Source of the DNA: a virus
IMG/VR virus record: IMGVR_UViG_3300043411_002930
Coordinates: 1 to 28,933 of that record
DNA length: 28,933 bases
Direction: 5' to 3' (one strand)
The translations under genes were made by a program, and so were the position numbers. Below, piece after piece: positions 1,862 through 24,868 of this stretch. Numbering within the stretch: position 1 is the stretch's first letter; every line of letters starts with the position of its first letter. The notes beneath the pieces are model-generated. The model had not been told where the DNA came from. It saw nothing but the letters and a program-made list of their open reading frames with translations, and ran no database searches.

Positions 1862-4800
1862 ATGTACAGTTTTTATAGAAAAGCCAGTTCAATATTTTTT
1901 GCAAATGAAAATTCTTTGAAAGGAAAAATCACAGCAATGCGTGATAGAGAATTTTCAGCATATCTATCAGTCCTTTCCCAAGTTCATGATAGCTTAAAAC
2001 AAGGTGTTGATTTTGAACAGGCTATATCTGATGCTGCGGGAGCTGCATATGTATCTAAGATCAAATCGATTATTGATGACATAGGAATGGAAACATTTTC
2101 ATCAAAATCTTTTGATGAAATTACAAAATCATTAGAAGATTTTAGGGCCCCACCAGAAGAAGAAGTAAAAATTCCAGGTGTTGAACCTACAACTTCTTAT
2201 ACAAATCCTTCACCAAAATTAGATGTTAATGAATTGTTAGGCATGCTTCCAGAGGAAAGATATGAATATTTTTTGAAATTAAATTATCCAGATTCAGAAA
2301 AGCAAAAAGCAAAGCATGTTTTAGAAAATTTAAGATTAATAAATCTCTTTTATTCTGATGAAGCAACCCCAGAAAGTTCAAAAGAAACTATTCTAAGAGA
2401 TTTAATTGATGCAATGGCAACTTTACAAACCATGGCTGATAAGCAAATTTCTGGCGAAATAAGTGAAGAAAACGAAGAACCTCTAGACGATGAAGATGAG
2501 GGGCCCGGAAGTGCTGGTAAAGGTCGAGATTTAAATAAAAAAATAAGTCCAAATTCAAAGAAAGAAAATTCAAAGAAAAAATATGTTTCAAACGCATCAT
2601 CTTCAGCGGACATAAGTCAAGATGATGTTTTAGAACAAGAAACTTTTATTAAAAATGAAAGTTTTAAGATTTTTCAGCAAAAAAGTAACAACCCTTATGT
2701 TGACTTTTCTGTAACGCCACCTAAAGTTAATGATGATTTAGAATTAGTTTTTGGTAAGTTCTTTTCTGATTTGGAAAAGATTTTCCAAGAAGCATGGAGT
2801 TCTTTGGATTCATCGAAGCCTGTATTAAAACAAAAGCTAAACACCTTGCTTTATTCAATTAAAGTTGCTGATGTTATGACATATAATGAATTACAAAATG
2901 CATTAAAAGATTATCCAAAAGAGTATGAGCGTGAGTATAAAAATTTAGAGCATCGACTTTCAAACGAGTTACCAACGCAAGTCATCTTGAAAGATGAATA
3001 TTTTGATACGTTGTTTTATGCAGCGATTTTTCTTTCAGCACCAAAGTTGGGAGAACTATTGATGTCAGAAGATCATAAGTTATTAGAAAATGAGGCTTTA
3101 AAGAATACTCATATTCAGGAATCAGATTTCGATTTAATTAAATCGAAAATGGAATCCTTTGCTAAGGTTAACTTTAAGAGTAAGGCTGTTGATTATTTTA
3201 AATTAAACTCTAGATACAAGGAAAAGAATTTCTTAGACAGGTGTGGTTTGAGATGGGACACGGTCTTCAAAAGAAGTCTTGAAAAAGTATATCCCAGTGG
3301 TCCAAAATTTACATTAAAGCCATGTCCAACATGTTATAAATGGGTGCCATGGTCATATACTGGTATGGCAAAGAAGAAACAAGAAGAATTTCAAGGCTTT
3401 TATGTTAGATTAATTTCTTACTTCACAAATAATATTGAGCATCCAAAAATTACTCTAGAAGATCTTCAGGCAAGAAAATGGCCAGCATTACCAAGCTCAT
3501 TGTATTCAAATGAAAGAGAGCAGCAACTTGCAAACAAGTACATGAGAGAGGGTGATAAAAGTTGGGATGAAATTCAAGATTTATTGAATAGTAATGATTC
3601 TAAAAAACATGAGGAGGGATGGCACCGTCGTTCTGGGGCTTTATATGCTGCAGGAGGTCAGTTTTTATCAAGTAAAGATACTTTGATTAATTCTGTAATG
3701 ACAGAATGTCCATTCAATTCTGCTGGAAAGTCAGGATGTGGAATTTCTTTTACTCCAACAAAGGCAGGTGGTGTAATTTCAGGAAAAACTGCTTTACAAC
3801 CACAATGGAATGGCATACCTGATTCGACTAGAAATAGATCTTATCAAACTAATACTTTGGCGGAAGAGTTATGGGATGATAAAGAATTATTTCAACAAGC
3901 AAAAAGTCTTCAACGTGGCGGGTATAAATTCTCAAGAATTAATTTTGCATGCACATGCCGTATAGCACAACCAGATAGTCTATCTTCATATAAACATAGT
4001 AACATTGCGATTTCCAAAGCTGGTTTGGCAGGCTCTCGTGATTTCGTTTATCCAACCCAACCAAATGGAACAGTAGATGATACAATCGAAGATGGGACTT
4101 TAACATACATGGTTTGTGGGGCACCAACATCTTTATCTTCTTTTGATAGAAATTCAAATAGTGTTGGCTTTATTCTAAAGTATTTAAAAGAAACCAGGGA
4201 ATCTTCATTCGAAGATTATCGTGGTCTGATGTCCTACTTAATTAAGGAAGGTGTTGATATCCAAAGTATTATGGATTTGGATCAGGACCTTGATCGATAT
4301 GTTCAAGAGACAGTAGAAAAACAGGCGGACAGCATTCAAGTTAGAATGAAAAAGATATCTTCATTATTAAAAGAAGCTGTGATAAGCCTTCCTAACGAGG
4401 GCTTTGGTAGTGACAAAAGAAAATATTTTGGTGGGCTAACATTAGTTTGTCCATTCGGCCATAAATTTACAGTCGAACATAGTTTAAGGTTTGCGGAAGC
4501 AAACGCCGGCATCTTCCAAAAAGAAGGCTTGTTGAAAAATTATGCATCATTAGTAACAACAAATGGTGAAAGTAATCTAAAAACATTAATTAAAGAAAAA
4601 TATATTGTTCCAGCTGATGACAAAGAAATGTCTGGTTACCCTAACAAGATGCCATATGAAAAATGGAAATTACAACCAAATGGTGTAGTTTTCCCTGACT
4701 TTAAAAACCCAGAACTTCCTCTTTTAACATTTTCAATACCTGTTAATCTTAATGGTGATATGGTTGATTATGTTTTCTATAAAAAAGGGCATGGATGGAA

Positions 4801-7618
4801 AGACTCTATCTGGTTACCAAATCATTCATATGAATCATCAAGACATGAAGTTAATTCTTTAGAATTAGATGAGTCAGAGCGGGCCGCACTAACATCAAAA
4901 TCTGGCGATGACGAAGATTCTTTTGATGTCATGGATATTGCAGGATATCAAGAATGGAATATTAAAGAGAATAATTCTGTTGTAGACTTTGAATTTAATC
5001 AAATGCCATCCAAACCTATTCCAGGTGCAGGAAAATTAGAAAATGATGTTGGAATAGACCCTCAAGAGCTCAATAATAGGATCGAGTCTTTTTCAAGGGC
5101 TTTAAAATCGACATTGAGAATTATAATAACTTGGACAAAAGGTTTGGTTAGCGATCAAATGATGTCAACGATGTTAACAGATTATAAGGTGGATTTGTCT
5201 CCTTATATTGAAGAATTAAGTGCGCCACTTATACCTCATTTGATTTTAGAAGACTTGTCTGGAGAAAGATTATCTATAAATGATAAATCTCCCGAAGTAC
5301 AATCGTTAATATCAGATGCCAAGAAATATATTCTAAACAAGGTTAATGAAAAATCAAATATAACTTACGATTGGATTCGGAGCAATATTCACGAACTTCC
5401 TGAAGATAAAACTTTCGATGAACAAATCGCAGTTACAATTATTGCTAATGCCATCAGAGAATTCAATAGTCCGGATTTAGATACAGCTTTTTTCTCTGAA
5501 TATGGAGAAGCGACTCTTGATATGGATAACTTAGATACGGTATCTAAAATTATTGCTAAAAAAATTGTTGATTCGAATCAACAAATTACAAAAGAGATCT
5601 TACTTAGAAGTGTTAGCCATAAAGAGTATGAAAAAAGAAAAGTTCAATACAATAGTAGAGTATTTATGGTGGGATACTCACAATATTTAGCTAATGCATT
5701 ATCTTTAATATATAAAAAATATTGTTTAGATAAAAATTCATATTTATACATTGGTTATGATATAGGTATTAATCTTTCAGATCCTACCAAAATTTTAGGT
5801 TACATGAAAGAAGGGGCCTGGGTCGGTGGAATTTCAGAAGACCAGGTTGATAACATCATTTCATCATTGTCTGAAGCAATTAAAAACTCGGGTCCTTTTG
5901 CTAAAGTTAAGCCTCAAACTTTACATTATGGATATCGAATCGATAGAGCTTGGGAAGAATTAGAGTCGTATTTAACTAGGGCTAAAAAATATTCTGTATC
6001 AGCAAGAGCAACAGAGTTATCTAGAGAATATATAGTATCTAGATTATCTTTCATTTCCGGGCAAAAGATAGCTGATGTTAAAGAAAAAATATCAGGAGTT
6101 TATCCTTCACGTTCAATATTATTTAACGGTACAACAGAAAAACCTGAGACAGCCACATATTTAGTAACAAAAAGAAGAATACCACACATTAGTAAAGAAC
6201 ATAACTTTGTTAAGTTGCCAGGCACACAAATTGTTCACGAGTGGGTTGTTAGAAACAAAATCACAAACGAAATTTTTGTGTATTCAGATGAAGCTGAGGC
6301 GAATGGAAAATTATCAACAATATTAGCTAACACACAAGAACTCGACAAAAAGAATTGGGTTCTAGAGCCTGATCCTTATTGGGTAAACGAAAATTATAAT
6401 TTTGATAGTAGCAAAATGCAGGTAGGAATTTTAACGCCTAAAGTTAGGGTGGATTTTGAATGGCCTCCTCAGCCAGGCACAATGGATTTCGTAGGAATAA
6501 ATCTTCCCTTCGAAATTACGGATAAGAAGGTAGATGCAAGTGTTAATAAGGCCAAAGATGTACCAATTTTAGGACTTCGAATGATTGTTGATTTTGATGG
6601 TTATCCATTAGATATTTCACCTTTAATTAGAAAAGGTGATGGCTCCGATTTAACTATTGCAAAAATAAACAAAGCAGAGCAATATATTATTGAAGCAAAC
6701 AAATCAACTCAAAGAGCAATTGAATTATATCGACAAGAAATGTCTAATGATATTAATAAAAATCCAAAAATATTGGCTGATTTTATAGCTTCAGAAGAGG
6801 CAAAATTAATGATTGCAATAGAGCCATATTTAGAAATCATAAATTCTCAAAATACATATCTCACAACAAAACAGTCTTATCAGGACCCAGCAGAGTTGGG
6901 TTTTGGAAGACCTATGATGAGAATTGCAATTGAGGATCCAATTAGGGCTTATAAAATTATAATGAACCCTCAAATTAGAGGAGTTAATCTTACATCAGAA
7001 CAACAGGATATGCTAATTGAATTTATAATTAGAATTTATAACTTAGATATGATTAGAGATTATGCAAGAACAATTTATCCTGATCTGCAGACAAAAGATC
7101 TTTTTGAAAAAATAGATGTTTTAAACTTTAAGAAGATTAATTCGAAAATGAAATCTGGAGTTTCGTATACTTCAGAAGGAAAAGAGCAACTTGGTTGGGC
7201 TCATTTGCCTGGTGAATATTTCAATTTAATTCCAGGAGAGCAAGGAACTGATTCAGGTAGTTATTTGCAATATGTATATAACACTAATCAAAACGTAGCA
7301 TCAACTTTGGCTCAGGGAAAGCATCCAAATATGAAAACTTTAGTTAATGCATCTCATACCGTCAAGGAACATGGATTATCAGAAAAAGAAGCAGATAACA
7401 ATATGTTTGTAAGTAAAATGGAAAAAGATATGTTGTCCTATATCAGATCTAGAACATCTGGTGAACGTCAAAATGCGGCCAAAGATCACAAAAAGAAGAA
7501 GGCCTCTAAAGAAAGTAATAAAGTCACATTGACAGAATATAAGCTATCGCGTATCCTAGATACAGCAGAACTTTCCTTAGGGCTGCCGTTTGATGATGTA
7601 GAAATTCCAAACTTTTAA
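1862..7618 (+). CDS. Very large hypothetical protein (about 1918 aa) with several Cys clusters
   Basis: This is the largest gene in the window and I do not recognise it. Two in-frame ATGs exist, at 1856 and 1862; the AAAGGA at 1847-1852 is only 3 nt from the first but 9 nt from the second, so I chose 1862. Numbering from the first ATG, residues 1-195 are helical. Residues about 198-222 are an acidic, Gly-rich linker (EENEEPLDDEDEGPGSAGKG) followed by a basic KK/Ser stretch. Cys-rich motifs follow: CPTC near 490-493, C-x9-C near 618-628, CTC near 699-701 and CPFGH near 865, suggestive of zinc-binding sites. The rest is a mixed alpha/beta sequence with a Lys-rich tail (KDHKKKKASKES). No transmembrane segment or enzyme signature is evident. 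A protein this size in a phage suggests a virion or injected internal protein, which is inference only. Confidence 0.8.
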   Translation: MYSFYRKASSIFFANENSLKGKITAMRDREFSAYLSVLSQVHDSLKQGVDFEQAISDAAGAAYVSKIKSIIDDIGMETFSSKSFDEITKSLEDFRAPPEEEVKIPGVEPTTSYTNPSPKLDVNELLGMLPEERYEYFLKLNYPDSEKQKAKHVLENLRLINLFYSDEATPESSKETILRDLIDAMATLQTMADKQISGEISEENEEPLDDEDEGPGSAGKGRDLNKKISPNSKKENSKKKYVSNASSSADISQDDVLEQETFIKNESFKIFQQKSNNPYVDFSVTPPKVNDDLELVFGKFFSDLEKIFQEAWSSLDSSKPVLKQKLNTLLYSIKVADVMTYNELQNALKDYPKEYEREYKNLEHRLSNELPTQVILKDEYFDTLFYAAIFLSAPKLGELLMSEDHKLLENEALKNTHIQESDFDLIKSKMESFAKVNFKSKAVDYFKLNSRYKEKNFLDRCGLRWDTVFKRSLEKVYPSGPKFTLKPCPTCYKWVPWSYTGMAKKKQEEFQGFYVRLISYFTNNIEHPKITLEDLQARKWPALPSSLYSNEREQQLANKYMREGDKSWDEIQDLLNSNDSKKHEEGWHRRSGALYAAGGQFLSSKDTLINSVMTECPFNSAGKSGCGISFTPTKAGGVISGKTALQPQWNGIPDSTRNRSYQTNTLAEELWDDKELFQQAKSLQRGGYKFSRINFACTCRIAQPDSLSSYKHSNIAISKAGLAGSRDFVYPTQPNGTVDDTIEDGTLTYMVCGAPTSLSSFDRNSNSVGFILKYLKETRESSFEDYRGLMSYLIKEGVDIQSIMDLDQDLDRYVQETVEKQADSIQVRMKKISSLLKEAVISLPNEGFGSDKRKYFGGLTLVCPFGHKFTVEHSLRFAEANAGIFQKEGLLKNYASLVTTNGESNLKTLIKEKYIVPADDKEMSGYPNKMPYEKWKLQPNGVVFPDFKNPELPLLTFSIPVNLNGDMVDYVFYKKGHGWKDSIWLPNHSYESSRHEVNSLELDESERAALTSKSGDDEDSFDVMDIAGYQEWNIKENNSVVDFEFNQMPSKPIPGAGKLENDVGIDPQELNNRIESFSRALKSTLRIIITWTKGLVSDQMMSTMLTDYKVDLSPYIEELSAPLIPHLILEDLSGERLSINDKSPEVQSLISDAKKYILNKVNEKSNITYDWIRSNIHELPEDKTFDEQIAVTIIANAIREFNSPDLDTAFFSEYGEATLDMDNLDTVSKIIAKKIVDSNQQITKEILLRSVSHKEYEKRKVQYNSRVFMVGYSQYLANALSLIYKKYCLDKNSYLYIGYDIGINLSDPTKILGYMKEGAWVGGISEDQVDNIISSLSEAIKNSGPFAKVKPQTLHYGYRIDRAWEELESYLTRAKKYSVSARATELSREYIVSRLSFISGQKIADVKEKISGVYPSRSILFNGTTEKPETATYLVTKRRIPHISKEHNFVKLPGTQIVHEWVVRNKITNEIFVYSDEAEANGKLSTILANTQELDKKNWVLEPDPYWVNENYNFDSSKMQVGILTPKVRVDFEWPPQPGTMDFVGINLPFEITDKKVDASVNKAKDVPILGLRMIVDFDGYPLDISPLIRKGDGSDLTIAKINKAEQYIIEANKSTQRAIELYRQEMSNDINKNPKILADFIASEEAKLMIAIEPYLEIINSQNTYLTTKQSYQDPAELGFGRPMMRIAIEDPIRAYKIIMNPQIRGVNLTSEQQDMLIEFIIRIYNLDMIRDYARTIYPDLQTKDLFEKIDVLNFKKINSKMKSGVSYTSEGKEQLGWAHLPGEYFNLIPGEQGTDSGSYLQYVYNTNQNVASTLAQGKHPNMKTLVNASHTVKEHGLSEKEADNNMFVSKMEKDMLSYIRSRTSGERQNAAKDHKKKKASKESNKVTLTEYKLSRILDTAELSLGLPFDDVEIPNF

Positions 7619-7641
7619 TTAATGCGAATAGGAGAAATATA

Positions 7642-8061
7642 ATGACTGATTTAGTTGGAGCCATTAATCCATTTTCTGCAGTAACAACAGAAAAAGTTGC
7701 TGATAAAGATGCGATTAGAAAATTCGTTAAAGATATGATTGAGATGACAGAAAAAGTAAAAGATGCTCAGGGTGACTTAAAAGAAGTTATTGATTCAAAT
7801 GAAGAAATAATTGATATTGATGAAGAAATTAAATCTTTAAAAGAAAGGAGAAAGCAAATTATTGCGGAGAGTGCTGTTATTCAAGGTTATCTTCAAGTCT
7901 TAAACGAGGTTTTGGAAGAGAAACAACAAGTTATTTCTGATGCTAAACAAGATAATGTTCCTAAAAGTGAGATCGATTTAGCAATCAAAGCTCTTAAGAA
8001 AAATATCGATATGAAACTCTCAACAGAGGTGTATTCGAATATTGCAGATCTTATTGATTAA
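7642..8061 (+). CDS. Small coiled-coil protein, 139 aa
   Basis: A good Shine-Dalgarno (AGGAG) sits just upstream of the ATG. After a short uncharged N-terminus (TDLVGAINPFSAVT), residues from about 30 to 120 are almost entirely heptad-like Lys/Glu/Leu/Ile sequence, for example EEIKSLKERRKQIIAES and LQVLNEVLEEKQQVIS. This predicts a long alpha-helical coiled coil, probably a dimer or trimer. I do not recognise a family. The stop codon overlaps the next ATG (TAATG), so the P-loop-like protein behind it is translationally coupled. It could be a structural spacer, a chaperone or a regulatory partner of that NTPase-like protein. The gene is real on grounds of codon use, ribosome site and overlap; its function is open. 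Confidence 0.75.
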   Translation: MTDLVGAINPFSAVTTEKVADKDAIRKFVKDMIEMTEKVKDAQGDLKEVIDSNEEIIDIDEEIKSLKERRKQIIAESAVIQGYLQVLNEVLEEKQQVISDAKQDNVPKSEIDLAIKALKKNIDMKLSTEVYSNIADLID

Positions 8062-8552
8062 TGATTAAAGAAGATTTGTATTTAAAACTAAATCTTCTTC
8101 CTCCAGAAGAGTATGCTGAATTAGATAGGCAAAGTAGGGTTTCTAGTTCGTTTAAAATTCTAAAAAAATATGCAAACATTAATGGTCTAAATTCATTAGC
8201 ATCTTTAAATATGGAAATGGAACAAAAAATTCTGTATCGAAGAACTGGAAAAACTACCAATTCTATAATAGAGATGTTATTTAGATTCTACCAAGGTTGG
8301 CATGTGGCTGTGCTGTGTACTAACACAAACATGGTTAGATACACTACAGCGGTAACTCAAGACTTTAGAAAAGTCTTGGATCCTGAATACTTTTATCCAC
8401 CTATGTGTGGGAATTATGAAGTTATTAGAAAAACTATTTTTGAATATAATCTTAGAAATACTTTTTCTAAGACTCATATTTTAGATCAATATGATTTTAA
8501 CCCACATATGCTTGGGAAGAAATTTGATCTTATAATTGATGATAGTGATTAA
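8061..8552 (+). CDS. Short P-loop NTPase-like protein, 163 aa
   Basis: The sequence has a Walker-A-like segment at residues 60-66 (RRTGKTT) followed by a helix and a strand (WHVAVLCTNT). It ends exactly at a Walker-B-like strand, FDLIIDDSD (residues 155-163). That order resembles the first half of a RecA-fold or superfamily-2 type NTPase, but the Walker A lacks the usual full GxxxxGKT spacing. Everything normally C-terminal to Walker B (sensor, arginine finger) is missing. It may be an intact minimal phage NTP-binding protein or the surviving front end of a larger NTPase. It overlaps the upstream coiled-coil gene by TAATG and lies 12 nt before dnaE, which hints at a replication or packaging role. 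No frame continues the fold after the stop; dnaE begins instead. Confidence 0.65.
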   Translation: MIKEDLYLKLNLLPPEEYAELDRQSRVSSSFKILKKYANINGLNSLASLNMEMEQKILYRRTGKTTNSIIEMLFRFYQGWHVAVLCTNTNMVRYTTAVTQDFRKVLDPEYFYPPMCGNYEVIRKTIFEYNLRNTFSKTHILDQYDFNPHMLGKKFDLIIDDSD

Positions 8553-8564
8553 TGTTGTTAATTC

Positions 8565-10049
8565 ATGTTGAACATTGGAGATGTTTTGAAAAAAAAATTT
8601 GTATCTTTGCACAATCACTCTCACATAGGGAGCCCTTTAGACGGCTTTAATTCAATTAAAGATTTAATTGAAGGAAGTCAAGAGGCCAACCATCCAGGAT
8701 TTGCTTTAACAGATCATGGAAGTATGTCTGCTTTATATGACGCATGGAAAGAAACTAAAAAAACGGGAACAAAATTTATTCCTGGTAACGAAATGTATTT
8801 CACAGAGGATCTAAATCCAGAAAATAAAAAAAATTATCATATAGTGTTATTAGCTCAAAATGAAATAGGTTATAAAAATTTATTAAAGCTTAATTTAGAA
8901 GCGTTTAAGCATCAATCTATAGGTTATATGGGTAAAGGTACGCCCAGAGTTAGCTGGGAACAAATACAGAGATATAACGAAGGTTTGTTTGCTTTGACAG
9001 CTTGCTCAAATGGAATTATTGCAAAAACATTAGTTTCAGATCAAGATGTTGAGAAAGCCGAAGAGATAATTAAGAAGTTACATTCAATATATAAAGATAA
9101 TCTCTTCTTGGAGTTACAGCCACATTCTTTACTTCATATCAATCAAAAAACTGGAAAAGAAGTTAATCAAATTAAATTGAATGAATCTTTACTTAAGTAC
9201 TCAAGAGATTTTAAGATTCCATACGTCATAACATGTGATGCTCATTATAGAAACAAAGAAATGAGTGTATCTCACGATATTATGTTAGCTATAAAAGACA
9301 AGAAACCTGTTGATGATCCAAATAGATTTAGATATGGAATTCAGGATATGTATTTTAAGACAGAAGATGAAATTACAGATTTCTTTGGAAAAGATATCGC
9401 TGAGATAGGCATGGCAAATACTATAAAAATTTTCGATGCTTGCGAAATGCCAACTTATTTAGAAAGTCGCGGTCCAATTTTACCAAAGTTTCCGGTTCAA
9501 GAAGAACAGGATTACAAAAAATTTAGAGAATGGTTTGAAAAGAATGAAGATAGCATAGATGAAGATAAAGCATATTTAAGGTATAAATGTATTCAAGGCT
9601 TTAAAGAAAAATGTCAAGACTTTTCACCAGAAAAGAAAAAAGAATATTGGAGTCGAGTTAAGAAAGAATTAGAAGTTTTAGAAATGCGAAACTTCTCATC
9701 TTATCTTTTAATCGTTGCTGATTATTTTAATTGGGCGAAAGAGCAGAAGATACCTACCGGAACCGGCCGCGGCTGTTTTGTTCCTGAAAGTTTAGTTGGA
9801 TTAATTGATGGAAATTTTAAAGCAATAAAAAATGTAATAATTGGTGATGTTGTAATTTCTCACGATAACACGGCAAATAAAGTTATTGATGTTTTATCAT
9901 ATGAAGTTAAAGAAGAAATTTTAGATCTTGAATTTGAGAATGGGAAAATAATTTCTTGTACGAAAGAACACGAATTTTTTACAAATAATCGCGGATGGGT
10001 TCAGGCGCAACATCTTAATGATGAAGATGATGTTGCGTATGTCTGCTAA
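8565..10049 (+). CDS. dnaE: DNA polymerase III alpha subunit, N-terminal half fused to split-intein N-fragment
   Basis: Residues 1-403 are the N-terminal part of a bacterial-type replicative polymerase. The PHP domain starts with VSLHNHSHIG (about 13-22), TDHG at 49-52 and a CDAHYRNKE segment near 225. Residues about 355-403 enter the palm domain and end with IPTGTGRG, the start of the Pol III active-site motif GRGSxxGSLVxY. At Cys404 the sequence switches to an intein N-fragment and stops at residue 494. The missing polymerase half is at 12669-14756. Protein trans-splicing would give an alpha subunit of about 1099 residues, close to bacterial DnaE length. Start choice: ATG 8565 has no Shine-Dalgarno, whereas an in-frame TTG at 8586 has TTGGAG five bases upstream and would give LKKKFVSLHNH, the usual distance to the PHP motif. 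The true start may therefore be 8586. Confidence 0.93.
   Translation: MLNIGDVLKKKFVSLHNHSHIGSPLDGFNSIKDLIEGSQEANHPGFALTDHGSMSALYDAWKETKKTGTKFIPGNEMYFTEDLNPENKKNYHIVLLAQNEIGYKNLLKLNLEAFKHQSIGYMGKGTPRVSWEQIQRYNEGLFALTACSNGIIAKTLVSDQDVEKAEEIIKKLHSIYKDNLFLELQPHSLLHINQKTGKEVNQIKLNESLLKYSRDFKIPYVITCDAHYRNKEMSVSHDIMLAIKDKKPVDDPNRFRYGIQDMYFKTEDEITDFFGKDIAEIGMANTIKIFDACEMPTYLESRGPILPKFPVQEEQDYKKFREWFEKNEDSIDEDKAYLRYKCIQGFKEKCQDFSPEKKKEYWSRVKKELEVLEMRNFSSYLLIVADYFNWAKEQKIPTGTGRGCFVPESLVGLIDGNFKAIKNVIIGDVVISHDNTANKVIDVLSYEVKEEILDLEFENGKIISCTKEHEFFTNNRGWVQAQHLNDEDDVAYVC
9774..10046 (+). other. Split intein N-fragment (91 aa)
   Basis: The fragment begins with the nucleophile Cys1 right after GTGRG (CFVPESLVGL, block A). 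It continues with I-GDVVISHDN and ends with block B, SCTKEHEFFT (the TxxH motif), followed by RGWVQAQHLNDEDDVAY, the usual end of an intein N-domain. A TAA follows at 10047-10049. The length is typical of split-intein N-pieces. The matching C-fragment lies 2.5 kb downstream, so the two must associate and splice in trans to rebuild DnaE. The key residues of the N-part are all present, so I expect it to be active; that is inference from intein chemistry. Confidence 0.93.
10006..10037. repeat. Perfect 9-bp inverted repeat at the end of intein-N
   Basis: CGCAACATC at 10006-10014 and its reverse complement GATGTTGCG at 10029-10037 flank a 14-nt loop. The hairpin lies inside the coding sequence, ending 9 nt before the stop of the intein N-fragment. 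There is no T-run behind it, so it is not a standard terminator. It could be an RNA structure affecting termination, RNA processing or re-initiation, or a scar of the event that split the intein. It could also be a by-product of the local Asp/Asn-rich coding sequence. Confidence 0.5.
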
Positions 10050-10097
10050 TATTTTACTCGCAAACTTTCTTAATTCTTCTTTCATTTTTATCACTAA

Positions 10098-10591
10098 TGG
10101 GAACCGACCGCGGCTCTCTACTGGTATAAAAGAAGAATTAAAAACTGCCCTGAAGAAATATTGGAGTTTCTTTATAAAAAAGAAGATATTCTATTTATGT
10201 TATGGATGAAATTAAATAAACCGGTTAGATCGGTTAAGATTTATTGTGAAATTAATTGCGAGATTTGTAAAGAAAAATCTCGGCAACGAAAAGATATTAT
10301 CCGGATTATTTATTATTATGTAATTCTAAAAAAATATTGATTGAAATAAAATCCACAAAAAGTTATCTTTATAATGAAAAGAAAATTCAAGCAAAGATAG
10401 AGGTGACAAATAAATATTTAGAATCGGGAAATATAGATGAATATTTTCTTGATGAAAATATGGCCCAAAATATTGGACTTGTATTCAAAAGAACTGGCGG
10501 AATAAAACATATTTGTAAAAAATTATATGCGGAAGATAAATTAAAATTATATTCCGATAAAAAGCATAAAGATTATATCGTCGAAAAATAA
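10098..10591 (+). pseudogene. Frame-broken remnant resembling a PD-(D/E)xK (Vsr-like) homing endonuclease
   Basis: Two overlapping open stretches in different frames read as one protein. From 10098 one frame gives WEPTAALYWYKRRIKNCPEE and later KPVRSVKIYCEINCEICKEK, ending in KSRQRK near 10292. The second frame then continues as RYYPDYLLL, KKILIEIKSTKS and YNEKKIQAKIEVTNKYLES to the stop at 10591. The join needs a one-base slip at the AAAA run 10289-10292. PD-x(n)-(E)xK, here YPDYLL...ILIEIKS, is the core of the restriction-fold nuclease domain seen in phage homing endonucleases, and CEINCEIC may be a zinc site. The second frame has only a TTG (10337) as a start, without a Shine-Dalgarno, and the first has no start near its beginning. 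I infer the decayed original endonuclease of this split intein. A programmed -1 frameshift or a translated 84-residue remnant is less likely. Bases 10050-10097 hold nothing I recognise. Confidence 0.6.
10100..10117 (+). repeat. Copy of the uninterrupted dnaE insertion site (17/18 match)
   Basis: GGAACCGACCGCGGCTCT matches the joined extein sequence formed by 9759-9773 plus 12669-12671 (GGAACCGGCCGCGGC|TCT) with one mismatch, G to A at 10107. It spans the junction, so it cannot be copied from the present interrupted dnaE alone. In the matching frame it reads GTDRGS versus GTGRGS in the polymerase. The flanks do not align clearly. A GC-rich 17/18 match in such AT-rich DNA is very unlikely by chance. 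It is probably a relic of an empty target site or a retained cleavage or recombination site. Confidence 0.8.
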
Positions 10592-10600
10592 GGAGATATT

Positions 10601-11581
10601 ATGGATTATATAGGCTCAAAAGAAAAATTAAATGAATGGATTTTTTCCATCATACTTAAAGAAAATAAAGCAGATGAACTTATTTTCTTAGATGCGTGTG
10701 CCGGATCTGGTTCCGTCAGTAAATATGCTGCAAAAATGGGATTTAAAAAAATTATTTCCAATGATCTTTTATCTTTTTCACAGCACTTGGTTATTGGCGC
10801 AATAGGATTAAGTACTTTACAATATCAGACTGTTGATAATTTAATTAAAAAGTTGAATGAAGCGCCTCTACTTGAGGGATTTTTTTATCAAAATTATTCA
10901 GAGCATACTGGTAAATTATACTTTACTGATTATAATGCAAAAAAAATAGATGGCGTTCGCGCCCTGATAGAGAAAATAGAAGAACCAGCAATCAAAAGTT
11001 ATGCACTTTATTGCTTGTTAGAGGCGATGAGTTCCGTTTCTAATACTGCTGGTGTTCAAGCGGCATTTTTAAAGAAAATAAAAAGTCGGGCATTACAAGA
11101 AATCCATCTTAAAAAAATGCCGTGTGCTTGTTTACCGGATAAAATCATAACATACAATATGGATATAAGTAAATTAATGAAAGATTCAAGTTTTAGATCT
11201 CTATATAGTGAAAATATCTTATATATTGATCCTCCTTACAACCAAAGACAATATGCGCCAAATTATCATCTTTATGATACATTATCGAAAAATGATTCTC
11301 CGGCGATTTATGGAAAAACAGGACTGAGGGATTGGGGTGTGGAAAAAAGTTCCTTCTGTTCAAAAAAAACATGTGTTTCTTTTTTAGAAGATATTGTTAA
11401 AAACTCTAAAGCGGAGCGAGTGTATATTAGTTACAGCTCTGATGGTATTTTAGAGTTAGAAGATTTTCCGTTTAAAGAAAAAGTTGTATATTCTAAGCCG
11501 CAAAAAAGATATAAATCTGATTCGAAAAGAAATAATGATGAAACTGAACTATTTGAATATTTAATTGAAATAAAAAAGTAA
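10601..11581 (+). CDS. Type II N6-adenine DNA methyltransferase (D12 class, M.NlaIII-like)
   Basis: This 326-residue protein transfers a methyl group from S-adenosylmethionine to adenine N6 in a specific DNA site. It opens with MDYIGSKEKLNEWI (motif X of the alpha/D12 class). FLDACAGSGS (about 29-38) is AdoMet motif I, IISNDLL (51-57) is motif II, and IDPPYNQRQYAPNYHLYDTL (DPPY at 210-213) is catalytic motif IV with the long signature I associate with M.NlaIII-type enzymes. SNTAGVQAAFLK and KTGLRDWG also fit that group. Its length is normal and no motif is lost, so it should be active. A strong AAGGAG lies five bases before the ATG. The HNH nuclease gene follows 8 nt later, making a modification-then-restriction pair. 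Site specificity (CATG by family resemblance) is only a guess. Confidence 0.9.
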   Translation: MDYIGSKEKLNEWIFSIILKENKADELIFLDACAGSGSVSKYAAKMGFKKIISNDLLSFSQHLVIGAIGLSTLQYQTVDNLIKKLNEAPLLEGFFYQNYSEHTGKLYFTDYNAKKIDGVRALIEKIEEPAIKSYALYCLLEAMSSVSNTAGVQAAFLKKIKSRALQEIHLKKMPCACLPDKIITYNMDISKLMKDSSFRSLYSENILYIDPPYNQRQYAPNYHLYDTLSKNDSPAIYGKTGLRDWGVEKSSFCSKKTCVSFLEDIVKNSKAERVYISYSSDGILELEDFPFKEKVVYSKPQKRYKSDSKRNNDETELFEYLIEIKK

Positions 11582-11589
11582 AGGAATGT

Positions 11590-12567
11590 ATGAGTAAAAT
11601 TATAATTGAAGCATGTAGAAAAAAAGATTTAGAGGATCCCAAGCATTGGGAAAAAAAGGAAAAGTGGAAAAAGGCAATTAAATTAGCTAATTTAAATGAT
11701 GATGGATATGGATTTTTAAAAGCTGAAGATTTGCCGCCAGATATGCAATCAAATAATGGAAAAACTTGGGCACGAACTGCGGAAAAATATTTTAAAATTA
11801 CAGAAATACGTAAAAATAATGGTGATAAAGGCGCTGTATCTGCTTATGAGTTTAGTGGATTTCACAAAAAAGAAAAAGATGAACATGCAATTCCTTCTAA
11901 TGTTAGAAAATATTTTAAAACCAAAGAAAAAAACTGTTTAGTTTTAGGTACCTCCCACGGTGTTGAGATTGATCATAAATATCCCTATTACCTTTATAAG
12001 GATTATAATTTTAAAAATGATGTTTCAAATTATCAATACATATCTCCTTCTGTAAATACTAAAAAAAGAGAGGAGTGCAAAAAAACCGAACAAAGCGGAG
12101 TTAAATATGATAATAGAAAGAATTGTTGTTTTTTCAGAACCGCTCACGGTAAAGGCAAATATGAAAAAGAAAAAATAACGTTAAACTCTCCATATGATGG
12201 ACAGTATTTTACTGATGTAGCTGAGACTTGTTTAAGGGATAACGAGTTATATTTCAAATATTTTCAAAAACTTAAGCCACTTTCCCATGATGATTTTAGG
12301 AAGATATATATTCCGTTAATAAATCAAGTCATTGAAGATGATTTTAATGTTGAAGATTATGATAATGTTTGTTGTTTTGTTTTGGAAAAAATAGAAAATA
12401 AATCATCAACAGAACAATTAAAAAATGCTTCAGATCTGCCACTAAAACCTGACGACGAGTCCCCAGGTGTCGATCGTGAAAACCATGGAGTCGAAAACAA
12501 AACAATGGCGAAATCTCAAAAATTAGATTATAAGTTAAGCATAAATCCTTTTAAGGAAACTAAATGA
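11590..12567 (+). CDS. HNH (beta-beta-alpha-Me) restriction endonuclease candidate, 325 aa
   Basis: The nuclease core lies at residues about 115-185: NCLVLGTSHGVEIDHKYPYY, then ISPSVNTKKREECKKTEQSG, then VKYDNRKNCC. The EIDHK followed by an Asn-containing helix (N156) matches the HNH/beta-beta-alpha-metal layout of restriction enzymes such as NlaIII, as I recall that family. Residues 50-110 (NGKTWAR..KYFKI..., SGF, NVRKYF) would be the DNA-contacting N-terminal region. The C-terminal 60 residues are acidic and low complexity. It follows the methyltransferase by 8 nt with AAGGA upstream of its ATG. Its stop overlaps the ATG of the intein-C/DnaE-C gene (ATGA). As the partner of a specific methyltransferase it is most likely a restriction enzyme; an HNH homing endonuclease is the alternative, but the adjacent methylase argues against that. 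Confidence 0.82.
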   Translation: MSKIIIEACRKKDLEDPKHWEKKEKWKKAIKLANLNDDGYGFLKAEDLPPDMQSNNGKTWARTAEKYFKITEIRKNNGDKGAVSAYEFSGFHKKEKDEHAIPSNVRKYFKTKEKNCLVLGTSHGVEIDHKYPYYLYKDYNFKNDVSNYQYISPSVNTKKREECKKTEQSGVKYDNRKNCCFFRTAHGKGKYEKEKITLNSPYDGQYFTDVAETCLRDNELYFKYFQKLKPLSHDDFRKIYIPLINQVIEDDFNVEDYDNVCCFVLEKIENKSSTEQLKNASDLPLKPDDESPGVDRENHGVENKTMAKSQKLDYKLSINPFKETK

Positions 12568-12668
12568 AATTAATTAAAAAAACATCAAGAAATTACAGCG
12601 GAACGGTTTATGATTTAACTGTAGAAAACACTCATTCTTATAACGTCGAAGGTTGTGCCGTTCATAAT
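12564..12668 (+). other. Split intein C-fragment (35 aa)
   Basis: MKLIKKTSRNYSGTVYDLTV followed by ENTHSYNV is intein block F, and EGCAVHN is block G with the penultimate His and terminal Asn. The +1 residue is Ser (TCT 12669-12671), a valid splicing nucleophile for the C-extein. The length, about 35 residues, is that of natural split-intein C-pieces. Together with the N-piece at 9774-10046 it forms a complete mini-intein of 126 residues with no endonuclease domain. All chemically required residues are visible. Confidence 0.94.
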
Positions 12669-14759
12669 TCTGTTGTTGGCAGTTTAGTTGCCTATTTAAC
12701 CGGAATTACTAAGGTAGATCCTATTAAACATGATTTACTCTTTGAAAGATTTCACAATCGAGAGAAGAAAGCGTATCCGGATATTGATTTAGATTTTTCA
12801 AAGTCGAAAAGAGATTTAGTTAAAAAATATTTAAAAACAAAATATGGAGAGGATCGTGTTGCTGGTATTAGTAATTGGAGCACTTTATCTCCAAAGGTAG
12901 TTATTAAAGATGTAGCACGTAGTTTAAATATAGAAGGTGATAAAAAAGCTACTTTTGAAGTTGCCAATTATATAACTTCAATTATGCTAGAAGAAAAAAC
13001 TATTGAAGAGATTGAAAGTAAAAGTAAAAAATTCCAATCTTACATGGTAAGTTATCCAAAGCTTAGAAAACATGCCATAGAATTACAAGGTTTGGTTAGA
13101 AATTGGGGTGTTCATGCGGCTGGTGTGGTCATTTCAGACAAGCCTTTAGTAGAACTAACTCCATTAAGAGTTGATGAAGACGGTGATATGATTTTACAGT
13201 GGGAAAAAACTAGAACCGAAGAATTTGGTTTAGTTAAAATGGATTTGCTTGGTTTAGATACTTTAGATGTAATTGCTGAAACAATTCAGTTAATTGAAAA
13301 GCACAAAGGAATTAAAATCGATATTGATAAAATTCCAACAGATGATCGAGAGACTTTCGAAATGATTGGTCGAGGGCAAACTATGGGAGTCTTTCAGTTA
13401 GAATCATCTTTAGCTCCACTTTGTATGAAAATTAAACCAAAATCAATTGATGATATTTCTGACATTAATGCGTTGGGAAGACCATCTTGTTCTGCTGAGC
13501 AGAGACAAAGTTATATTGAAAGAAAAATGGGGGCGGAACCGATTACATATCTTCATCCAAATCTAGAAAATGCGTTAAAGAAAACCTTTGGCATTTCTCT
13601 TTATGAAGAAGCCATGATGACTGTCGCAAAAGATTGTGCGGGCTGGGACTTAAATCAATCTGATGCTTTAAGAAAGATTACTAAACTTAAAGGAAAGGAT
13701 CCCGAGTTAGTGGAAAAAACTAGAAATACCTTTATTAATGACTCAGTAAAGTTTTCTGGGATGTCAAGTAAAGAAGCAGCTCGGATTTGGGAACATGAAA
13801 TAGAACCTTATGGTTCTTATGGTTTTAACAAGGCTCATAGTGTTGCTTATTCATATATTTCTTATCAAACCGCTTGGTTAAAGTGTCATTATCCAACTGA
13901 ATATATGTGTGCGTTGCTAAATAGTGAGGATCCAAATAGTGATAAATTGTTGGAGTATATTCAAGAATGTTCTAAAATGGCAATTAAAATTACTCCACCT
14001 AATTTAAATACGAGTCGATATAATTATATGGTGACTGGCTCAAAATCTATTGCGACTGGTTTATCGGCCATTAAAGGAATTGGACCAAAGGCGTTAGAAG
14101 AAATTTTATCATTACAACCATTTCAAAACTTAGAAGATTTCTTTTTAAGAACAAATGCTAGAGTCATTAACAAAGGAGTTATACAAGCTTTGGCTAAAGC
14201 AGGAGTTTTTGAAACTTTCAATAGAACTCGAAAAGATATTTTTGAAAATTACGAACAATATCGTGATTTGGTGAGGGCAGAAATAAAAAAGGGAAAAACT
14301 ATTGATTTAATTAAATTGCCGTCGTACCAAGAAGAATGGGACCGCAAGCAATTTTTATTATCTGAAAGAGAGGTTTATGGTCGAACTATTAGCGGCTCTC
14401 TTCATGAAATTTTCAAAGGATTTTTTAGAGCAAACTCTTCTGTGACACCTCTTCGAAAGATTAAAGATATGCAGCCGGGTGATCGAGTTAAAATTGAAGT
14501 TATTATTAACTCAAAAATAAAAGAATTTACAGTTAAAAAACCAGGCAAAAACTTTGGAAAGAAATTCGCGAAATATTTAGTTGAAGATGCTACCGGAACT
14601 ACTGCTGAATTTACGGTTTGGATGGATGATTATCAAAAATATAATCATATTCTTCAAGATGGTTTACCATTAAAAGCCGTTTGTAAAATAGATGAATATA
14701 TGGAACAACGTAGTTTGTCACTTTCTACATTAGAGGGTGTTCTTGGAAAAGAAATTTAA
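12564..14759 (+). CDS. dnaE: Split-intein C-fragment fused to DNA polymerase III alpha subunit, C-terminal half
   Basis: Residues 1-35 are the intein C-fragment; residues 36-731 complete the polymerase. SVVGSLVAYLTGIT (36-49) resumes the active-site motif. YPDIDLDF (71-78) carries the catalytic aspartates and D227 in KMDLLGLDTL is the third one. SYGFNKAHSVAYSYISYQTA is a conserved Pol III segment. Next come a helix-hairpin-helix (GLSAIKGIGPKALEEIL) and, at the C-terminus, an OB-fold (VKIEVIINSK ... GTTAEFTVWMDDY). The finger motif usually written RPGP here reads GRPSCSAEQ, an unusual variant. The ATG overlaps the restriction gene stop (ATGA) with AAGGAA seven bases upstream. On its own this half lacks the PHP domain and the GRG of the active site, so function requires trans-splicing with the product of the gene at 8565. 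Confidence 0.95.
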   Translation: MKLIKKTSRNYSGTVYDLTVENTHSYNVEGCAVHNSVVGSLVAYLTGITKVDPIKHDLLFERFHNREKKAYPDIDLDFSKSKRDLVKKYLKTKYGEDRVAGISNWSTLSPKVVIKDVARSLNIEGDKKATFEVANYITSIMLEEKTIEEIESKSKKFQSYMVSYPKLRKHAIELQGLVRNWGVHAAGVVISDKPLVELTPLRVDEDGDMILQWEKTRTEEFGLVKMDLLGLDTLDVIAETIQLIEKHKGIKIDIDKIPTDDRETFEMIGRGQTMGVFQLESSLAPLCMKIKPKSIDDISDINALGRPSCSAEQRQSYIERKMGAEPITYLHPNLENALKKTFGISLYEEAMMTVAKDCAGWDLNQSDALRKITKLKGKDPELVEKTRNTFINDSVKFSGMSSKEAARIWEHEIEPYGSYGFNKAHSVAYSYISYQTAWLKCHYPTEYMCALLNSEDPNSDKLLEYIQECSKMAIKITPPNLNTSRYNYMVTGSKSIATGLSAIKGIGPKALEEILSLQPFQNLEDFFLRTNARVINKGVIQALAKAGVFETFNRTRKDIFENYEQYRDLVRAEIKKGKTIDLIKLPSYQEEWDRKQFLLSEREVYGRTISGSLHEIFKGFFRANSSVTPLRKIKDMQPGDRVKIEVIINSKIKEFTVKKPGKNFGKKFAKYLVEDATGTTAEFTVWMDDYQKYNHILQDGLPLKAVCKIDEYMEQRSLSLSTLEGVLGKEI

Positions 14760-16589: not shown

Positions 16590-17951
16590 ATGGGAAAACA
16601 CAATCGATTTACAAAAGAACAACTTTATCAGCTCTATATAATAGAGGACAAAAACCAACGTGAGGTTGCCTTAGAATTAAATTCCAGTTTGGATTTAATA
16701 CAAAAAACCTTGTCAAAGTTCAATATTAAAAAATCAAAGAAATGTATTGCTAATAATAGGGCAAAAACTAATTTGAAAAAATATGGAGTATTAAATCAAT
16801 TTCAGAATCCAAGTATTAAGGAAAAAATAAAAAAAACATCTTTAATGAAATATGGTGTTGAAAACCCTATTCAAAATAAAGATGTCAAAACAAAAGCTGT
16901 AAAAACTATGATTGAAAAATACGGAACTGAAGTTCCATTAAGAAATGGTGAAATTCAAAATAAGTTTAAAGAAACTAACTTAGAACGTTATGGGGTATCA
17001 AACCCTTCTCAATCAGAAGAATCTAAAAACAAAGTTAGATTTAAAATGCTGGAAGCTAACAGGTCTTGTCTAATCTTAGGAAAGACACCAAAAGAATGGG
17101 CGCGAAAATATAACGTGCCTGCAACTAGCTTATATAATTGGATTGGGGAAAATTCACAACTTTGTGATCAAACATTCTTTGAATATTTAACAAGCTATAA
17201 AAGGACATTGACTGATATTGAGAATATTGTTGTTAAGGAATTTAATGTTGATTTTTGGAATAAAAATTGTCATGGATTACATTATAAACCAGATTTTAAA
17301 ATTAATGAATTTACGTACTTGAATGTTGATGGATTATATTTTCACTCTAATATTTATAGAGATAAGTTTTATCATTTCAAATTAAGAGAGGATTTCGAAA
17401 AACAAGGTTTAAAAATTTTTCAATTCAGGTCTAATGAAATTTATGAAAAGCTACCAATAATTAAATCTATTTTGGGATTGACTAATAAAAAACATGATAT
17501 AAGTCTCAAGAATATGATTATCAAAGCAGTTTGTGATCAAGATGCTAAAAAATTTTTAGAAGCTAATCATATTAAGGGTTCTATTGTTGCAAAACATGTT
17601 GGTTTGTATTTAGAAAACGAACTGATGTTTTTGATATCATATAAAATATGTAAAGACAATAATAAAAAAAATATTAAAATAGAGAGAATTTGTTTTAAAT
17701 TAAATTTGATGGTGTTTGGCGCGTGTGGTACTATATTAGAGTACATTAGAGCAATCAATGATGTTGATGATATGTCATACTTTGCTGACCTGAGATATGA
17801 ATCGGGTCAAGAGTTAATGGACTATGGATTTAAGATTAAATCAGAGTTTTTAAGGTATGAATGGACGGATTTTAAAAGTGTTTACAAAACAAAAACCAGT
17901 CGGTGTGAAACAAAAATATATGATGCTGGACAAAGATTATTGATTAGATAA
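16590..17951 (+). CDS. Free-standing homing endonuclease-like protein (Vsr/EDxHD-type), 453 aa
   Basis: Domains in order: an N-terminal HTH (about 8-45, KEQLYQLYIIEDKNQREVAL), and four NUMOD-like repeats of the type NLKKYGVLNQFQNPSIKEK (about 60-150), which bind DNA along the groove. A second HTH follows (PKEWARKYNVPATSLYNWI, 167-185). Next is a Vsr/restriction-fold nuclease (LTDIENIV, YKPDFKI with D235, YLNVDGLYFHS with D247, then LKIFQFRSNEIYEK to about 287). A C-terminal domain (about 310-453) ends EWTDFKSVYKT...YDAGQRLLIR. Proteins with this repeat plus nuclease layout are known in phages as homing endonucleases that spread by cutting related genomes. It begins at the base after the previous stop and interrupts the run to ssb without damaging a gene. 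It is paralogous to the 599-residue protein at 24865. All domains look intact. Confidence 0.82.
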   Translation: MGKHNRFTKEQLYQLYIIEDKNQREVALELNSSLDLIQKTLSKFNIKKSKKCIANNRAKTNLKKYGVLNQFQNPSIKEKIKKTSLMKYGVENPIQNKDVKTKAVKTMIEKYGTEVPLRNGEIQNKFKETNLERYGVSNPSQSEESKNKVRFKMLEANRSCLILGKTPKEWARKYNVPATSLYNWIGENSQLCDQTFFEYLTSYKRTLTDIENIVVKEFNVDFWNKNCHGLHYKPDFKINEFTYLNVDGLYFHSNIYRDKFYHFKLREDFEKQGLKIFQFRSNEIYEKLPIIKSILGLTNKKHDISLKNMIIKAVCDQDAKKFLEANHIKGSIVAKHVGLYLENELMFLISYKICKDNNKKNIKIERICFKLNLMVFGACGTILEYIRAINDVDDMSYFADLRYESGQELMDYGFKIKSEFLRYEWTDFKSVYKTKTSRCETKIYDAGQRLLIR

Positions 17952-24430: not shown

Positions 24431-24868
24431 ATGAGTAATAAAAGTAAGATCTATCAGCATAAGATAGTTGAAATATCTTTTGATCAAAGCAAATTAAGTA
24501 ATTTTTCAACAGAACGTGGAATTAATTATATTTTAACAGAAAATGAAATGAGTGATAAAATATTGGAGCTTAGAACTGCGCTTATCGAACAGCTATACGA
24601 TGTTATCAATGGAGAGATGTTAACAGAACATCAAAAAAAAATTCTATTCATGAGATTAATGGGTAAAACGCAAAATGAAATATCTAGTCATTTAGGTATA
24701 ACGCAAAGTGCAGTTCATAAATCTCTCCATGGCAATATAGATTATAGAAACAATAAAAAGAGATATGGCGGAATAATAAAAAAATTAAAAAAAATTTGCA
24801 ACGGAAGTCATGAAATTCAAAATTTATTAAAGCAAATTAGTGATGTAAAATGTGAAAGCGAAGAATGA
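24431..24868 (+). CDS. Small sigma-70 region 4-like protein, 145 aa
   Basis: AGGAG stands seven bases before the ATG. Residues about 64-100 read LTEHQKKILFMRLMGKTQNE and ISSHLGITQSAVHKSLHG, a typical sigma region 4 helix-turn-helix (L-T-x-xx-x-I-L-xx-R-xx-G-x-T-Q-xE-IA-xx-LG-I-S-Q-xx-V). Region 2 is absent, so it is not a complete sigma factor. The N-terminal 60 residues are unrecognised. It could guide host or phage RNA polymerase to phage promoters like small late sigma proteins, or act as a simple DNA-binding regulator. The last codons overlap the start of the downstream endonuclease gene (ATGA). A second protein of the same general type lies at position 10. Confidence 0.72.
   Translation: MSNKSKIYQHKIVEISFDQSKLSNFSTERGINYILTENEMSDKILELRTALIEQLYDVINGEMLTEHQKKILFMRLMGKTQNEISSHLGITQSAVHKSLHGNIDYRNNKKRYGGIIKKLKKICNGSHEIQNLLKQISDVKCESEE

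What the first reader, a model, noticed from the sequence alone, without database searches (positions are those of the whole stretch)
9774..12668. A restriction-modification system nested inside a split intein in an essential DNA polymerase gene
Seen: dnaE is cut at GTGRG|S, with an intein N-piece ending in a stop and an intein C-piece starting 2.5 kb later; between them are a D12-class adenine methyltransferase and an HNH nuclease in tandem. Known: phage split-intein loci can carry a free-standing homing endonuclease between the gene halves. Inference: here a restriction-modification pair has taken that place. The pair could kill DNA lacking the element (competing phages or unmodified recombinants), protect the phage's own DNA and make loss of the locus costly, while trans-splicing keeps DnaE functional. 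I know of no described system that combines all three.
Basis: partly seen in the sequence, partly recalled or inferred. Interest (0 to 1): 0.95.

Follow-up and report, generated by a model that had tools for sequence, protein, structure and literature searches.

The report
Restriction-modification pair inside split dnaE gene
In a phage DNA-polymerase gene that is cut in two and rejoined as protein by a split intein, the gap that in related phages holds a homing endonuclease gene holds only the wreck of that gene, followed by a DNA methyltransferase and a restriction-enzyme-like nuclease. This is a new cargo for a known kind of selfish locus, and its function is untested.

Summary
dnaE is split at GTGRG|S by an intein with all canonical splicing residues (9774-10049 and 12564-12668). 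I found the same split at the same site in 36 other IMG/VR phage loci. In 27 of them the gap holds a free-standing PD-(D/E)xK homing endonuclease gene (HEG).

In the window that HEG is a wreck. Against the syntenic relative L189 it lacks codons 74-223 and is frameshifted. A two-gene cassette (10601-12567) lies exactly between the HEG's 3' end and the intein C-half. None of the 36 relatives carries it.

Gene 1 is a Type II D12 adenine methyltransferase with intact motifs. Gene 2 is a divergent homologue of the IceA/NlaIII HNH restriction enzymes (leave-one-out profile E 2e-12). That family recurrently sits beside methyltransferases. In gene 2 the catalytic D-H and N remain, but three of four zinc cysteines are lost.

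So a Type II R-M-like module sits in the HEG slot of a fractured gene. That the module replaces homing, kills rivals or addicts the phage is inference; the nuclease may be inactive and the specificity is unknown. I call it a new variant of a known kind, seen in one contig.

The parts
8565..9773 (+). dnaE N-extein half (PHP domain and start of the polymerase catalytic core), ending GTGRG
   Evidence: PF02811 E 5.5e-34, PF07733 E 7e-13, DnaE families E down to 1e-80
9774..10049 (+). Split intein N-fragment (91 aa plus stop): Cys1 and block B TxxH present
   Evidence: Alignment A3, 49-57% identical to intein N-fragments at the same dnaE site in L029, L034, L036 and L040; PF14890 E 8e-8
10098..10591 (+). 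Remnant of the free-standing PD-(D/E)xK homing endonuclease gene: 10128-10283 = codons 23-73, 10295-10579 = codons 224-319 of the L189 HEG; codons 74-223 deleted, frame shifted
   Evidence: tblastn with the L189 HEG, E 2e-12 and 5e-27, 42% and 46% identity
10100..10117 (+). GGAACCGACCGCGGCTCT, a 17 of 18 copy of the reconstituted empty dnaE insertion site (GGAACCGGCCGCGGC|TCT) at the 5' end of the HEG remnant; role unknown
   Evidence: 0 of 2000 shuffled queries reach 17 (best 14);
10601..11581 (+). D12-class (alpha) N6-adenine DNA methyltransferase, 326 aa; motifs YIGSK, DACAGSGSV and DPPY intact; Shine-Dalgarno AAGGAG at 10590-10595
   Evidence: PF02086 E 2.5e-29; PADLOC MTase_II E 1.8e-63; alignment A1
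11590..12567 (+). HNH-type putative restriction endonuclease, 325 aa; divergent homologue of the ICEA/NlaIII family; D128-H129, N156 and K159-R160 conserved; zinc cysteines other than C163 replaced
   Evidence: phmmer E 2e-11 to L047 (PF05315 E 1e-71); profile without it E 1.9e-12; alignments A2 and A5
12564..12668 (+). Split intein C-fragment (35 aa, ends HN), start codon overlapping the HNH stop (ATGA); Shine-Dalgarno AAGGA at 12553-12557
   Evidence: TIGR01443 E 1.4e-4, above its cut-off; alignment A4, 56-64% identical to siblings
12669..14759 (+). dnaE C-extein half, starting with Ser+1 (SVVGSLV)
   Evidence: PF07733 E 2.8e-55, PF17657 E 2e-42, PF14579 E 2.8e-19

Best explanation
This is a 'fractured gene' locus. 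A split intein interrupts phage dnaE at the conserved GRG|S site, the two halves are made as separate proteins, and trans-splicing would restore DnaE. Related phages carry a free-standing PD-(D/E)xK homing endonuclease gene in the gap. In this phage that gene has been destroyed by an internal deletion and a frameshift. A compact Type II restriction-modification-like module (D12 adenine methyltransferase followed by an IceA/NlaIII-related HNH protein) lies between the ruined gene and the intein C-half. The gap tolerates insertions because splicing happens at the protein level, so the cassette rides at an essential replication gene and is read in the same direction. Most likely mode of action, inferred: the methyltransferase marks phage DNA at a short site during replication; the HNH enzyme, if active, cuts unmarked DNA of the host or of competing phages. 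The mobility once given by homing is lost or supplied from outside. Shown: split, intein residues, HEG relic, position of the insert, homology of both enzymes. Inferred: splicing, enzyme activity, shared specificity, biological benefit.
For: Same-site split intein in 36 other phage loci, 27 with an HEG, 6 with a short gap and no HEG, 3 with other genes. HEG relic aligned piecewise to the syntenic L189 HEG, E 5e-27 and 2e-12. Collinearity with L189 resumes at 12558, so the cassette is a clean insert at the HEG/intein-C junction. No cassette homologue in any of the 36 gaps. MTase assigned to Type II, motifs intact. HNH homologous to the ICEA family. Members lie directly upstream of related D12 MTases in bacteria (L046, L061, L117, L120) and beside ORFs with MTase motifs of several classes in viruses (L265, L271, L272, L273, L276, L289). 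The nearest MTase relative, viral L121 (44% identity), also has an HNH-like ORF 9 bp upstream.
Against: Only one contig shows the arrangement. Three of four zinc-ribbon cysteines found in the other homologues are replaced in the HNH protein, so it may be inactive. P0004 gives no direct hit to the Pfam ICEA model at E<=1. Recognition site unknown; CATG occurs 64 times and is only mildly low (obs/exp 0.77). Trans-splicing is assumed from motifs.
Confidence: 0.62

Rival explanations
1. Only the methyltransferase is functional. It modifies phage DNA to escape host restriction, and the HNH partner is a decaying or repurposed remnant of an R-M module.
For: MTase catalytic motifs intact while the HNH zinc cysteines are eroded. 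In this family MTases outnumber detectable ICEA neighbours: most viral MTase relatives lack an ICEA neighbour.
Against: The HNH reading frame is intact over 325 codons, has its own ribosome-binding site, is overlapped by the intein-C start, and keeps its catalytic residues.
Confidence: 0.22
2. The R-M pair has functionally replaced the homing endonuclease as the selfish engine of the locus: it destroys unmodified competitor genomes lacking the element and penalises its loss.
For: HEG dead and R-M adjacent in the same slot; R-M modules are known selfish, addictive elements (general knowledge).
Against: No functional data. HEG loss without replacement is also seen (L191, L193, L200 relic, L203, L204, L211), so loss needs no replacement. 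A short-site enzyme cannot direct repair to the dnaE site as a homing enzyme does. A lytic phage gives little scope for post-segregational killing.
Confidence: 0.17
3. Neutral or generic cargo: the gap of a split-intein gene is simply a tolerant landing place, and the R-M cassette has no functional link with the intein.
For: Other loci hold unrelated genes in the gap: L228/L229 seven ORFs including an HD-domain protein, L230 a ResIII-type helicase and N6-MTase fragment plus HEG, L231 radical-SAM and other genes.
Against: The cassette sits exactly at the HEG/intein-C junction with coupled start and stop; this is weak evidence either way.
Confidence: 0.4
4. The HNH protein is a new homing endonuclease that took over from the PD-(D/E)xK enzyme, with the methyltransferase as a protective partner.
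For: It occupies the HEG slot and is an HNH protein.
Against: Its homologues are MTase-linked IceA/NlaIII restriction-enzyme relatives (PMC2749054 for iceA1 and NlaIII), not homing enzymes, and it lacks NUMOD-type DNA-binding repeats.
Confidence: 0.05
5. Assembly chimera joining an R-M fragment into dnaE.
For: Single contig; reads were not available.
Against: Both flanks are one phage's dnaE, collinear with L189. The HEG relic lies inside the gap, base composition and GC3 match the phage, and the HNH stop overlaps the intein-C start as the HEG stop does in L189.
Confidence: 0.03

Closest known systems
Fractured genes: split inteins with a free-standing homing endonuclease between the gene halves (Dassa et al. 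2009, NAR 37:2560; paper not held here, cited from memory and from reference lists seen)
   Same: Essential phage replication gene split by an intein at a conserved site; PD-(D/E)xK HEG in the gap in sibling loci; halves in one orientation
   Different: The HEG is ruined and a methyltransferase plus HNH restriction-like gene occupies the gap
IceA1-HpyIM / NlaIII-type Type II R-M systems (HNH restriction enzyme with D12 adenine MTase, CATG)
   Same: Homologous HNH fold family (PF05315 relatives) next to a D12 adenine MTase
   Different: Gene order M then R; HNH highly divergent (19-29% identity), C-terminally extended, zinc cysteines lost; MTase forms a separate deep branch with viral L121; specificity unknown
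Virus-encoded R-M systems, e.g. CviAII (CATG) of chlorovirus PBCV-1 (PMC7248222)
   Same: A lytic virus carrying both a methyltransferase and a restriction enzyme
   Different: Not inside a split-intein gene; eukaryotic virus
Bacillus phage G gp329 and Lactococcus phage 949 DnaE inteins
   Same: Intein at the same DnaE GRG|S position
   Different: Continuous (cis-splicing) inteins, no R-M cargo

Membership tests
Fractured gene with split intein | Host gene interrupted at a conserved site, both intein halves with splicing residues (Cys1, TxxH, HN, Ser+1) | tested here: met
   same site in 36 loci
Fractured gene with split intein | Free-standing PD-(D/E)xK homing endonuclease gene between the halves, intact | tested here: not met
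   Only a truncated, frameshifted remnant remains
Fractured gene with split intein | Trans-splicing restores the protein | not testable with these tools
   needs expression of both halves
Type II D12 (alpha) N6-adenine methyltransferase | PF02086 above threshold with AdoMet and DPPY motifs | tested here: met
   103 bits against cut-off 22; motifs
ICEA/NlaIII-type restriction endonuclease | Direct match to Pfam PF05315 | tested here: not met
   No hit at E<=1
ICEA/NlaIII-type restriction endonuclease | Significant homology to proteins that match PF05315 | tested here: met
   phmmer E 2.3e-11; leave-one-out profile E 1.9e-12, shuffles E>=40
ICEA/NlaIII-type restriction endonuclease | HNH catalytic D-H ... 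N residues | tested here: met
   D128, H129, N156 invariant
ICEA/NlaIII-type restriction endonuclease | CxxC...CxxC zinc ribbon | tested here: not met
   Only the first Cys kept (C163); the others are replaced, with C166 now Thr
ICEA/NlaIII-type restriction endonuclease | Known HNH (beta-beta-alpha metal) fold | tested here: inconclusive
   Core model pLDDT 69; no significant Foldseek match; weak VIA matches to HNH Cap5 and GVE2 HNH, Z about 4
ICEA/NlaIII-type restriction endonuclease | Adjacent cognate methyltransferase | tested here: met
   MTase ends 9 bp upstream; family recurrently MTase-linked. That the pair is cognate is not shown
ICEA/NlaIII-type restriction endonuclease | Cleaves CATG | not testable with these tools
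   needs enzyme or methylome

The most novel reading that the evidence does not exclude
A Type II R-M module has taken over from the dead homing endonuclease as the selfish engine of a split-intein locus in an essential polymerase gene, so that restriction pressure rather than homing keeps the element in the phage population.
Probability: 0.17. Interest if true: 0.85.

Novelty: new variant of a known kind. Interest (0 to 1): 0.6.

Why it matters
Split-intein loci were explained as homing platforms. A locus with a dead homing gene and an R-M module in its place makes it possible to ask directly whether such slots are passed between kinds of selfish nucleases, and whether a phage can use an essential, protein-spliced gene as a shelter for restriction genes. 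The survey also gives a dated series (HEG intact, HEG decayed, HEG gone, other cargo) at one insertion site.

Tried and rejected
Direct searches for the HNH protein in PDB, Pfam, NCBIfam, PHROGs, PADLOC, phage and plasmid records, viral contigs and genome contigs gave nothing; it was placed only through neighbours of methyltransferase relatives. Comparison with the nuclease neighbours of the first phage and plasmid MTase relatives gave nothing. CATG depletion as a hint of specificity: weak, not used. MTase tree to transfer specificity: P0003 sits in a deep branch with viral L121 only, so CATG was not transferred. Full-length model of the HNH protein: pLDDT 48, discarded; core model pLDDT 69, fold search without significant match. 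Promoter scan of the region was no richer than shuffles; terminator-like sites were more frequent than in shuffles (5 against 1.5) but lie partly inside genes and were not interpreted. Assembly chimera considered and judged unlikely. Reading the 2009 fractured-gene paper failed: not held.
Full report
What is there. The window is a 28.9 kb IMG/VR virus contig. dnaE is in two reading frames. The N-half (8565-10049) ends in GTGRG followed by a 91-residue intein N-fragment and a stop; the C-half (12564-14759) starts with a 35-residue intein C-fragment ending HN, then Ser+1. DnaE domains are scored strongly on both sides of the cut. Cys1, the TxxH of block B, the terminal His-Asn and Ser+1 are all present, as in sibling inteins. 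Splicing itself was not tested.

The site is a recurrent split-intein site. Two distant relatives have an uninterrupted dnaE there (L002, L004). Bacillus phage G and Lactococcus phage 949 carry cis inteins at the same point. A pattern scan and a profile scan of viral contigs found 36 loci with both halves separated. By homology search of the gaps, 27 have a PD-(D/E)xK homing endonuclease gene; for L206-L209 and L212-L213 this was tested on one copy each, and L205 has no single full-length ORF, only a full-length profile match. Six have a short gap without an HEG (L191, L193, L200 with a relic, L203, L204, L211). Three have other genes without a detected HEG (L228, L229, L231). Several of the 36 are near-copies of each other, so these are counts of loci, not of independent events.

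The homing gene in the window is dead. L189 (IMGVR_UViG_3300025141_016717) is collinear with the window across the dnaE region and much of the first 20 kb. Its 323-residue HEG matches the window in two pieces: codons 23-73 at 10128-10283 (42% identity, E 2e-12) and codons 224-319 at 10295-10579 (46%, E 5e-27), in different frames, with codons 74-223 missing. The collinearity with L189 then breaks at 10579 and resumes at 12558. The cassette therefore lies between the HEG's 3' end and the start of the intein C-fragment. No homologue of either cassette gene was found in the other 36 gaps or in the loci around them.

The methyltransferase. It is a D12-class adenine methyltransferase (PF02086 E 2.5e-29; PADLOC Type II E 1.8e-63) with intact catalytic motifs. 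In a tree of 76 relatives it pairs only with the viral L121 protein, 44% identical, so no specificity can be transferred. L121 also has an HNH-like ORF ending 9 bp upstream of its methyltransferase; that ORF is not significantly matched by the ICEA profile.

The nuclease. Direct searches failed. Among neighbours of methyltransferase relatives, 14 full-length proteins matched it at E 2e-11 to 6e-6, and those scanned match Pfam ICEA (PF05315) at E down to 1e-116. A profile built without the window protein scores it at E 1.9e-12, while 20 shuffled versions and the reversed sequence gave nothing better than E 40. IceA1 of Helicobacter pylori is 52% identical to the restriction enzyme NlaIII (PMC2749054). 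In bacteria the ICEA gene lies directly upstream of the MTase in L046, L061 and L120; in Clostridia it often lies about 1 kb downstream on the other strand. In viruses ICEA homologues sit beside ORFs with methyltransferase motifs of several classes (L265, L271, L272, L273, L276, L289; recognised by motif, not by a domain search). The window protein keeps D128, H129, N156 and K159-R160, but of the CxxC...CxxC zinc ribbon only C163 remains. A core model shows a strand-strand-helix at the HNH position, with confidence too low for a fold assignment.

Mechanism. Shown by sequence: split gene, intein residues, dead HEG, position and content of the cassette, homology. Inferred: trans-splicing, enzyme activity, common recognition site, benefit. 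The most economical account is that the gap tolerates insertions because the break is repaired at protein level, that homing was lost, and that an R-M-like module landed in the slot. Whether it works as a pair, and whether it replaced the homing gene in function, is open. The lost zinc cysteines argue for caution; the intact frame, ribosome-binding sites and overlapping ATGA argue that the gene is still translated. Virus-encoded pairs of this type exist: PBCV-1 carries the CATG system CviAII (PMC7248222).

Novelty. The fractured-gene architecture and the enzyme families are known. The combination of a dead HEG and an R-M-like pair in a split-intein gap was not found in the 36 siblings or in the papers searched. 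The library lacks many papers, including the central one. I rate it a new variant of a known kind, interest 0.6.

Side observation. An 18-base stretch at 10100-10117 matches the reconstituted empty dnaE site at 17 positions; 0 of 2000 shuffled queries reach that. In L189, L196, L197 and L202 the first 90 bases after the intein-N stop also hold their own target site, inverted, above shuffled expectation (per-locus p about 0.003 to 0.03, not corrected for some 30 loci tested); most other loci do not. It could be an operator through which the homing enzyme controls its own gene, as recalled for I-TevI, but this is a lead only.

Noticed in passing
window 10100-10117: Near-perfect copy (17 of 18) of the empty dnaE insertion site at the 5' end of the dead HEG; inverted copies of the local target stand near the HEG start in L189, L196, L197 and L202. 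Possible operator or decoy for the homing enzyme.
   Followed up: partly
L189 10128-11520: The C-half of dnaE in the syntenic relative carries a second insert with intein-like ends and a nuclease-like ORF at the FNK|SHS position, recalled as the site of the cyanobacterial DnaE split intein.
   Followed up: partly
L033 (= L230) 2637-9040: Gap of another split dnaE holds a ResIII-type helicase, a 145-residue N6-methyltransferase fragment and an HEG, so modification-related genes occur in a second such gap.
   Followed up: partly
window 24865-26664: Homing-endonuclease-like protein (PHROG 3339, E 4e-37), a second selfish nuclease in this phage.
   Followed up: no
window 16590-17951: DUF7487 protein; the same Pfam family matches the HEGs of the split-dnaE gaps, so it may be a further free-standing HEG.
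   Followed up: no
window 19414-21069: Phage-encoded cpn60/GroEL-like chaperonin (PF00118 E 2e-50).
   Followed up: no
window 10575-10582 and 10604-10611: GATTATAT occurs at the end of the HEG relic and at the start of the methyltransferase gene; possible microhomology at the insertion joint, or chance.
   Followed up: no
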